From Ardenticatena maritima (GTDB taxonomy: Bacteria; Chloroflexota; Anaerolineae; Ardenticatenales; Ardenticatenaceae), in the NCBI RefSeq assembly GCF_001306175.1, contig NZ_LGKN01000005.1, positions 186,001-250,000 of the forward strand: a stretch of DNA of 64,000 nt. The letters are read 5' to 3'. The notes beneath the pieces are model-generated. The model searched no databases. It was not told the DNA's origin and saw only the letters and a program-made list of their open reading frames with translations. How positions within the stretch are numbered: position 1 is the stretch's first letter; each line of letters opens with the position of its first letter. Below are positions 10,493 to 11,656 of this stretch, piece after piece. The position numbers and the translations under genes were made by a program.

Positions 10493-10586
10493 CCAGGCGC
10501 ACGCGCGGGGTTGCCCATTGGCGCGGAGTGCGGTATGCTCGGCACACGCTTTTGCCAGAGGCGAGAGCATATTTTGCCAAGCAAAT

Positions 10587-10673
10587 AGTTGAACGTGATA
10601 AAGTTCTGTCAGCCCCCCCCCTGAAACGAGGCGATTTTGGGGCGATTTTGAGGGGGTCTGAAAACGTTCAACT
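10587..10673 (+). promoter_or_regulatory. CRISPR leader with a 10-bp inverted repeat
   Basis: The 370-nt gap between the GNAT gene and the array is the leader. AGTTGAACGT (10587-10596) and its exact complement ACGTTCAACT (10664-10673) flank an AT/G-rich segment with two GGCGATTTTG-like copies. GTCTGAAAA at 10656-10664 equals the first 9 nt of the CRISPR repeat. This arrangement looks like a protein-binding or integration-determining element, but that is inference. Confidence 0.45.
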
Positions 10674-10712
10674 TTCTGGAAAAAGAGGCGGCATTTGGCA
10701 TGGTTTTGGGGG

Positions 10713-10741
10713 TTGACAAACGCGCCATTTTCCTGTATGCT
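10713..10741 (+). promoter_or_regulatory. CRISPR array promoter
   Basis: Consensus TTGACA (10713-10718), a 17-nt spacer and TATGCT (10736-10741), with the first repeat about 50 nt downstream. Direction agrees with the repeat orientation, with the degenerate last repeat at the far end. Confidence 0.7.
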
Positions 10742-10792
10742 GTGCCACAGATGAAGCAGACGAGCGGACGATGCCCATAGCACATCCGTACA

Positions 10793-11281
10793 GTCTGAAA
10801 AGCCCTAATCCCCGCAAGGGGATTGAAACCCAAAAACTTCTATTTCCGACAATCTCAACATATAATACGTCTGAAAAGCCCTAATCCCCGCAAGGGGATT
10901 GAAACCTACGCTCAATAAGGTAAAGCAATGCGCGGTAGTCAGTCTGAAAAGCCCTAATCCCCGCAAGGGGATTGAAACTGTAAATCATAACGACTCGCCC
11001 GCATTTATAACATTGAGTCTGAAAAGCCCTAATCCCCGCAAGGGGATTGAAACGTTTATAAGACCGTTGCTCTCACCTTCTGAGCTACCCCCACGTCTGA
11101 AAAGCCCTAATCCCCGCAAGGGGATTGAAACGCATAACCACACATCCGGGAGGATGTGTGGACCCCCGCGTCTGAAAAACCCTAATCCCCGCAAGGGGAT
11201 TGAAGCCCCAGAACGACGCCTAGAGCGATAATCCAATCGAACGCGATTGAAAAGCTCCCATCCCCGCAAGGGGCGTGTCGT
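10793..11281 (+). CRISPR. CRISPR array, six repeats plus a degenerate terminal repeat
   Basis: Repeats of 37 nt start GTCTGAAAAG and end GATTGAAAC. Exact copies lie at 10793-10829, 10869-10905, 10942-10978, 11017-11053 and 11095-11131. The sixth (11170-11206) has two changes, and a seventh (11245-11281) keeps only the first half and the CCCCGCAAGGGG core. Spacers are 36-41 nt. Each repeat folds as AATCCCC-GCAA-GGGGATT, a 7-bp stem with a GNRA loop (10807-10824 in repeat 1), and the ATTGAAAC 3' end is the usual Cas6-generated crRNA handle of type I/III systems. Spacer 4 (11054-11094) is the antisense of a tRNA 5' half. Spacer 5 (11132-11169) is a perfect hairpin. There are no cas genes next to it; a lone cas6 is at 34171-35187. 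Confidence 0.98.
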
Positions 11282-11411: not shown

Positions 11412-11656
11412 CCAAGAGTGAAAACGGCTGTGAACCGGAGGAGTAGGCGGCGACGGTCGCCAGAGAGGGGCGGTCATCGGCTGGAAGCCGCCCTCGACAC
11501 GAACCGCCGAAGGTCGCCGGGGAGCCGCAACGGTGAAGCGCAGTAGCCGTTGCCGGGAGCGCCCGTTATCGCGCCACGAGCGCCGGCATCTTCTGCCGGA
11601 AGCAGGGTGGTACCGCGGAGGCAACGCCTTCGTCCCTGAGGGGGCGAAGGCGTTTT
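11412..11656 (+). ncRNA. T-box leader, valine (GUC specifier)
   Basis: The 14-nt T-box AGGGTGGTACCGCG is at 11604-11617, followed by a terminator hairpin (CGCCTTCG 11625-11632 with CGAAGGCG 11645-11652, then TTTT). Stem I is visible: the GAGTAGG bulge near 11440, an AGAGAG apical motif near 11462, and GGCGG pairing with CCGCC just before GAAG-GTC. By position the specifier is GTC (11513-11515), a valine codon, which agrees with valS downstream. Uncharged tRNA-Val should pair with the specifier and the T-box and prevent termination, raising methyltransferase and valS expression when valine is short. Confidence 0.93.

What the first reader, a model, noticed from the sequence alone, without database searches (positions are those of the whole stretch)
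11054..11094. CRISPR spacer 4 is antisense to the 5' half of a tRNA, anticodon UAU
Read on the minus strand the 41-nt spacer fits a tRNA over positions 1-40: a 7-nt acceptor strand, T8-A9, D-arm AGCTCAGAAGGTGAGAGC, then ACGGT, a CTTATAA loop and the start of a matching 3' stem (AC). The loop gives anticodon UAU (Ile, AUA codon). This tRNA is rare in bacterial chromosomes, which usually read AUA with a lysidine-modified CAU anticodon, but it occurs in phages. The crRNA made from this strand would pair with the tRNA itself, fitting RNA targeting. I infer that the array was aimed at a phage-borne tRNA gene or its transcript.
Basis: partly seen in the sequence, partly recalled or inferred. Interest (0 to 1): 0.78.

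Follow-up and report, generated by a model that had tools for sequence, protein, structure and literature searches.

The report
CRISPR spacer against a foreign tRNA
One of the memory pieces in this bacterium's RNA-targeting CRISPR array is a copy of the front half of a transfer-RNA gene that the bacterium does not itself have, most likely taken from a virus; this fits the known taste of this CRISPR type for folded sequences such as tRNA genes.

Summary
Spacer 4 (11054-11094), read on the minus strand, is the 5' half of a tRNA (positions 1-40) with anticodon UAU; it scores 11 SD above its own shuffles on a tRNA 5'-half profile, and no other spacer comes close. D-loop base 20 is T, as in 102 of 110 viral UAU tRNAs and none of 99 viral UCU tRNAs, so it is Ile(UAU)-type. 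The array is a satellite of a complete type III-A (Csm) locus without RT-Cas1: identical repeat, leader 91% identical, read on the + strand, so the crRNA is antisense to the tRNA. The host has 46 tRNAs, none UAU, plus a tRNA-Ile2-like CAU tRNA and TilS; the spacer is not self. UAU tRNAs are common in viral contigs but rare in the phylum (10 of 399 genomes). No protospacer was found in IMG/VR, GTDB genomes, phages or plasmids, so 'phage-borne' is likely, not shown. Published work shows that type III-A acquisition favours tRNA/rRNA and stem-loop DNA. These arrays fit: hairpins exceed shuffles and spacers are pyrimidine-rich, unlike a type I-B array of the same genome. A clean example of a known process.

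The parts
10573..10792 (+). Leader of the CRISPR array
   Evidence: 91.0% identical over 221 aligned columns to the leader of the array next to the type III-A operon; 88.9-95.6% to three other leaders; all abut the first repeat
10793..11206 (+). CRISPR array: six 37-nt repeats GTCTGAAAAGCCCTAATCCCCGCAAGGGGATTGAAAC, the last degenerate, with five spacers of 36-41 nt
   Evidence: Rfam CRISPR-DR18 matches
11054..11094 (-). Spacer 4: reverse complement equals tRNA positions 1-40, anticodon UAU; the crRNA (+ strand) is antisense to it
11132..11169 (+). Spacer 5: perfect 10-bp hairpin CCACACATCC-GGGA-GGATGTGTGG
11207..11244 (+). Old sixth spacer between the degenerate repeat 6 and a decayed seventh repeat
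11245..11281 (+). Decayed seventh repeat (26 of 37 identical), marking the trailer end

Best explanation
The array is a satellite array of the host's type III-A (Csm) system. Cas1-Cas2 once took up a piece of a foreign tRNA-Ile(UAU) gene, most likely from a virus, because type III-A adaptation favours DNA that folds into hairpins and cloverleaves. The insert was kept because it is harmless to the host, whose own tRNAs differ too much, and because it lies antisense to the transcript. The crRNA (5' tag AUUGAAAC + GUUUAUAAGACCG...) would pair with the 5' half of the tRNA precursor; its tag-proximal end lies over the anticodon loop, an open toehold and the part where host tRNAs differ. Binding would trigger Csm3 cleavage, Cas10 activity and the CARF effector. 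Shown here: tRNA identity and isotype, array orientation, complete type III-A operon without an RT-fused Cas1, absence of self match. Inferred: viral source, acquisition route, interference.
For: tRNA 5' half far above chance. Ile(UAU) type: base 20 is T in 102 of 110 viral UAU and A in 99 of 99 viral UCU tRNAs; UAU-minus-UCU score +9.2, inside the UAU range (1.0 to 51.3) and outside the UCU range (-25.9 to -4.9). Same repeat and leader as the array behind cas10/csm2-5/CARF/cas6/cas1/cas2. Host: 46 tRNAs, no UAU, a CAU tRNA of tRNA-Ile2 type and TilS; best host tRNA 31 of 41 identities with at least 4 mismatches in positions 27-40; the only match within 3 mismatches is the spacer itself. UAU tRNA pattern in at least 120 viral contigs against 10 of 399 other phylum genomes. 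III-A spacers: hairpin enrichment z -3.25 against 0.06 in the I-B array; pyrimidine-rich 38:22 against 10:28. Literature: type III-A adaptation prefers tRNA/rRNA and stem-loop DNA, without PAM (PMC9048733); functional type III spacers are complementary to transcripts (PMC7515739).
Against: No protospacer was found in any collection searched, and the other 62 spacers had no phage match either. The direct III-A versus I-B hairpin comparison is not significant (p 0.077 and 0.12). The anticodon stem ACGGT was absent from the 110 UAU tRNAs sampled and is typical of UCU tRNAs. A folded tRNA is a poor RNA target. The structure preference is known from two laboratory systems, not from this host.
Confidence: 0.72

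Rival explanations
1. The source was a chromosomal tRNA gene of another cell, or a tRNA gene on a plasmid or transferred DNA, not a phage.
For: A few genomes of the phylum carry UAU tRNAs, mostly in one family. Type III-A adaptation also samples cellular tRNA genes in the laboratory (PMC9048733).
Against: None of 400 phylum genomes has the 32-nt core within 3 mismatches apart from the spacer itself; no exact 25-mer in GTDB genomes; the listed plasmid hits are weak, at most 87.5% identical over 78% of the query.
Confidence: 0.15
2. The tRNA was an Arg(UCU)-type phage tRNA with a changed anticodon (C35 to A), so decoding or charging is not Ile.
For: A21 to C40 is identical to common viral tRNA-Arg(UCU) except base 35; phage JS98 tRNA-Arg matches 91% over 34 nt.
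Against: T20 instead of the A20 seen in all 99 UCU tRNAs; the D-loop region favours UAU by 11.5 bits; total score favours UAU.
Confidence: 0.1
3. The spacer comes from an attachment site (attP) of an element that integrates into tRNA genes.
For: tRNA genes are common attachment sites.
Against: Such elements usually use the 3' part of the gene (PMC6563490), and no host tRNA matches the spacer.
Confidence: 0.03
4. Chance resemblance of a random spacer to a tRNA.
For: Among 64 spacers a few weak resemblances are expected.
Against: z = 11 against shuffles; the next best spacer is 72 bits lower.
Confidence: 0.001

Closest known systems
Structure-biased, RT-free type III-A spacer acquisition (Streptococcus thermophilus, Zhang et al. 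2021; Staphylococcus epidermidis system, Aviram et al. 2022; as reviewed in PMC9048733)
   Same: III-A locus with Cas1-Cas2 and no RT on Cas1; spacer from a tRNA gene; excess of hairpin spacers
   Different: There the tRNA spacers came from the host's own genome in experiments; here the tRNA is foreign and the spacer sits in a natural array near its old end
Type III immunity with transcript-complementary spacers (Thermus thermophilus, PMC7515739)
   Same: Several arrays with one repeat served by a type III system; functional spacers antisense to phage transcripts
   Different: The target here is a structured non-coding RNA and its source is unknown
Phage-encoded tRNA-Ile(UAU)
   Same: D-arm, base 20, anticodon loop
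   Different: Anticodon stem ACGGT not seen in the 110 sampled; best identity among UAU tRNAs 33 of 41

Membership tests
tRNA gene, 5' half | 7-nt acceptor strand, T8, D-arm with G18 G19, T33 and purine 37 | tested here: met
tRNA gene, 5' half | complete cloverleaf including T-arm | not testable with these tools
   the spacer ends at position 40 and no protospacer was found
tRNA-Ile(UAU) | anticodon UAU in a standard 7-nt loop | tested here: met
   CTTATAA loop flanked by a pairing stem
tRNA-Ile(UAU) | body of Ile(UAU) rather than Arg(UCU) type | tested here: met
   T20 and +9.2 score difference; the anticodon stem alone points to UCU
Phage-borne tRNA | matching gene in a phage genome | tested here: not met
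   no match in the phage and viral collections searched; absence there does not exclude an unsampled phage
Type III-A CRISPR-Cas | cas10/csm1, csm2-csm5 in one operon | tested here: met
   NCBIfam hits over cut-off, in L064, not in the window
Type III-A CRISPR-Cas | window array served by that operon | tested here: inconclusive
   identical repeat and 91% leader identity; processing not observable
RT-mediated RNA spacer acquisition | reverse transcriptase fused to Cas1 or encoded beside it | tested here: not met
   Cas1 of 338 aa matches Cas1 models over nearly its whole length and no RT gene was seen in the operon; the rest of the genome was not searched for RTs
Self-targeting spacer | match in the host genome | tested here: not met
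   only the spacer itself within 3 mismatches; the assembly is 98.6% complete

The most novel reading that the evidence does not exclude
In nature, RT-free type III-A arrays are measurably enriched for structured sources, tRNA genes of viruses included, and a crRNA whose tag-proximal end covers the anticodon loop gives immunity that separates phage tRNAs from host tRNAs, hitting the very tRNAs with which phages are thought to resist host anticodon nucleases.
Probability: 0.1. Interest if true: 0.6.

Novelty: new member of a known kind. Interest (0 to 1): 0.36.

Why it matters
It is a natural, foreign-tRNA case of an acquisition bias so far seen mainly in laboratory experiments, and the two array types of this one genome give a built-in comparison (hairpin excess and pyrimidine excess in III-A, not in I-B) that could be tested cheaply on many genomes. 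If phage tRNAs are a recurring target, it would link type III immunity to the tRNA conflict between phages and hosts.

Tried and rejected
Exact and degenerate scans for the protospacer in IMG/VR, GTDB genomes, phages and plasmids: nothing. BLAST of the other 62 spacers against phages to name the virus: no match. A scan for other tRNA-antisense spacers behind the same repeat end in GTDB genomes: none; the pattern fixed the D-stem letters and one orientation, and the scan may leave out near-identical genomes, so this is weak. Stop-codon counts as a strand test of the spacers: no signal. Spacer 5 as a second tRNA: rejected by eye, no D-arm. Self-targeting and attP origin: rejected. Literature searches for reports of CRISPR spacers against phage tRNA genes found none in the held library, which does not cover most subscription journals.

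Full report
What is there. Window 10793-11206 holds six copies of a 37-nt repeat (the sixth degenerate) with five spacers; a decayed seventh copy lies at 11245-11281. Spacer 4 is 11054-11094. Its reverse complement is a textbook tRNA 5' half from the first acceptor base to position 40: GTGGGGG, T8, A9, GCTC, loop AGAAGGTGA, GAGC, A26, ACGGT, loop CTTATAA, AC. The anticodon is UAU. The Rfam tRNA model matches it at 20.6 bits, the 3' half being forced through the repeat. A profile from viral tRNA 5' halves gives 47.0 bits; 3000 shuffles average -48.1 and reach at most -9.0, and the next best spacer of the genome's same-repeat arrays has -25.6. It is not chance.

Which tRNA. The segment A21-C40 also equals the common viral tRNA-Arg(UCU) except for base 35, and some of the best BLAST matches in phages are tRNA-Arg genes. 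Base 20 separates the two: T in 102 of 110 UAU tRNAs, A in all 99 UCU tRNAs; the spacer has T. The total score difference is +9.2 in favour of UAU, outside the UCU range. The UCU sample was drawn mostly with the AACGG stem fixed, which biases that region in favour of UCU. The stem ACGGT was not found in any of the 110 UAU tRNAs, so this is an unsampled member.

Not self. The host genome (3.56 Mb, 98.6% complete, not named by the tools) has 46 tRNAs, among them three CAU tRNAs, one of the tRNA-Ile2 kind (assigned by resemblance), and a TilS gene; none is UAU. So AUA is presumably read by the lysidine route. The only match to the spacer within three mismatches is the spacer itself. The nearest host tRNAs reach 31 of 41 identities in a gapped alignment and differ by at least 4 of 14 bases in positions 27-40.

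Where it came from. UAU tRNAs of this consensus are found in 10 of 399 other genomes of the phylum, none with the spacer core within three mismatches. No protospacer was found in IMG/VR, GTDB genomes, phages or plasmids, and the other 62 spacers found no phage either. The mobile elements of this host appear to be unsampled. A viral source is the best guess from the frequency of UAU tRNAs in viral contigs, not a result.

The system. The same repeat occurs in five arrays of the genome. One lies directly behind csm1/cas10, csm2, csm3, csm4, csm5, a TIGR02710 CARF gene, cas6, cas1 and cas2; all are recognised by NCBIfam, all over cut-off except Cas6 (46.9 against 58.65), and Cas1 carries no reverse transcriptase. 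The window leader is 91.0% identical to the leader there over 221 columns. Leader upstream and decayed repeats downstream fix the direction: the crRNA is the + strand, antisense to the tRNA.

Why a tRNA. RT-free type III-A systems of S. thermophilus and S. epidermidis were reported to acquire tRNA and rRNA regions and, in S. thermophilus, stem-loops preferentially, without PAM (review PMC9048733), and functional type III spacers are complementary to transcripts (PMC7515739). Both marks are visible here. The 63 distinct III-A spacers have more stable folds than their shuffles (z -3.25; stems of 7 bp or more: 5 against 0.88 expected), while 38 spacers of a type I-B array in the same genome do not (z 0.06; 0 against 0.59); the direct comparison of the two sets does not reach significance (p 0.077). 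III-A spacers are pyrimidine-rich (38 against 22), I-B spacers purine-rich (10 against 28), as expected if III-A crRNAs are antisense to purine-rich messages (the purine rule is from general knowledge). The neighbouring spacer 5 is itself a perfect 10-bp hairpin.

How it would work (inference). The 5' end of the guide, next to the tag, covers the anticodon loop, which is open in the folded tRNA and could serve as a toehold; it is also where host tRNAs differ. The base-paired completion of the anticodon stem would put CGU after the protospacer, which does not match the anti-tag GUUUCAAU, so Cas10 should be licensed. Whether folded tRNA can be bound at all is untested; the nascent precursor is the likelier target.

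Verdict. A clean example of a known process: interest moderate to low.

Noticed in passing
window 11421-11640 (+): T-box leader (Rfam RF00230, 98.9 bits) in front of a methyltransferase-like gene and a valyl-tRNA synthetase-like gene, just downstream of the array (gene names from reading the ORFs).
   Followed up: partly
window 11132-11169: Spacer 5 is a perfect 10-bp hairpin with a GGGA loop; no viral match to its 24-nt core.
   Followed up: partly
L061, L062, L064, L065 and window arrays: III-A spacers are enriched for hairpins against shuffles and are pyrimidine-rich; 6 of 11 spacers of the C1 array have fold z-scores below -2.
   Followed up: partly
L065, spacers 11 and 12: Two identical neighbouring spacers: a repeat-spacer duplication.
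   Followed up: no
L061 (minus strand) and L065, array 3' flanks: At least 60 bases after the last repeat are identical in the C1 and C10 arrays, suggesting a duplicated locus.
   Followed up: no
L335:14571-19135: Cas3-like gene followed by a 610-aa protein with no NCBIfam match: possibly an unusual type I effector gene.
   Followed up: no
genome G000: No tRNA-Ile(GAU) among the 46 tRNAs found, probably an assembly gap at the rRNA operon.
   Followed up: no
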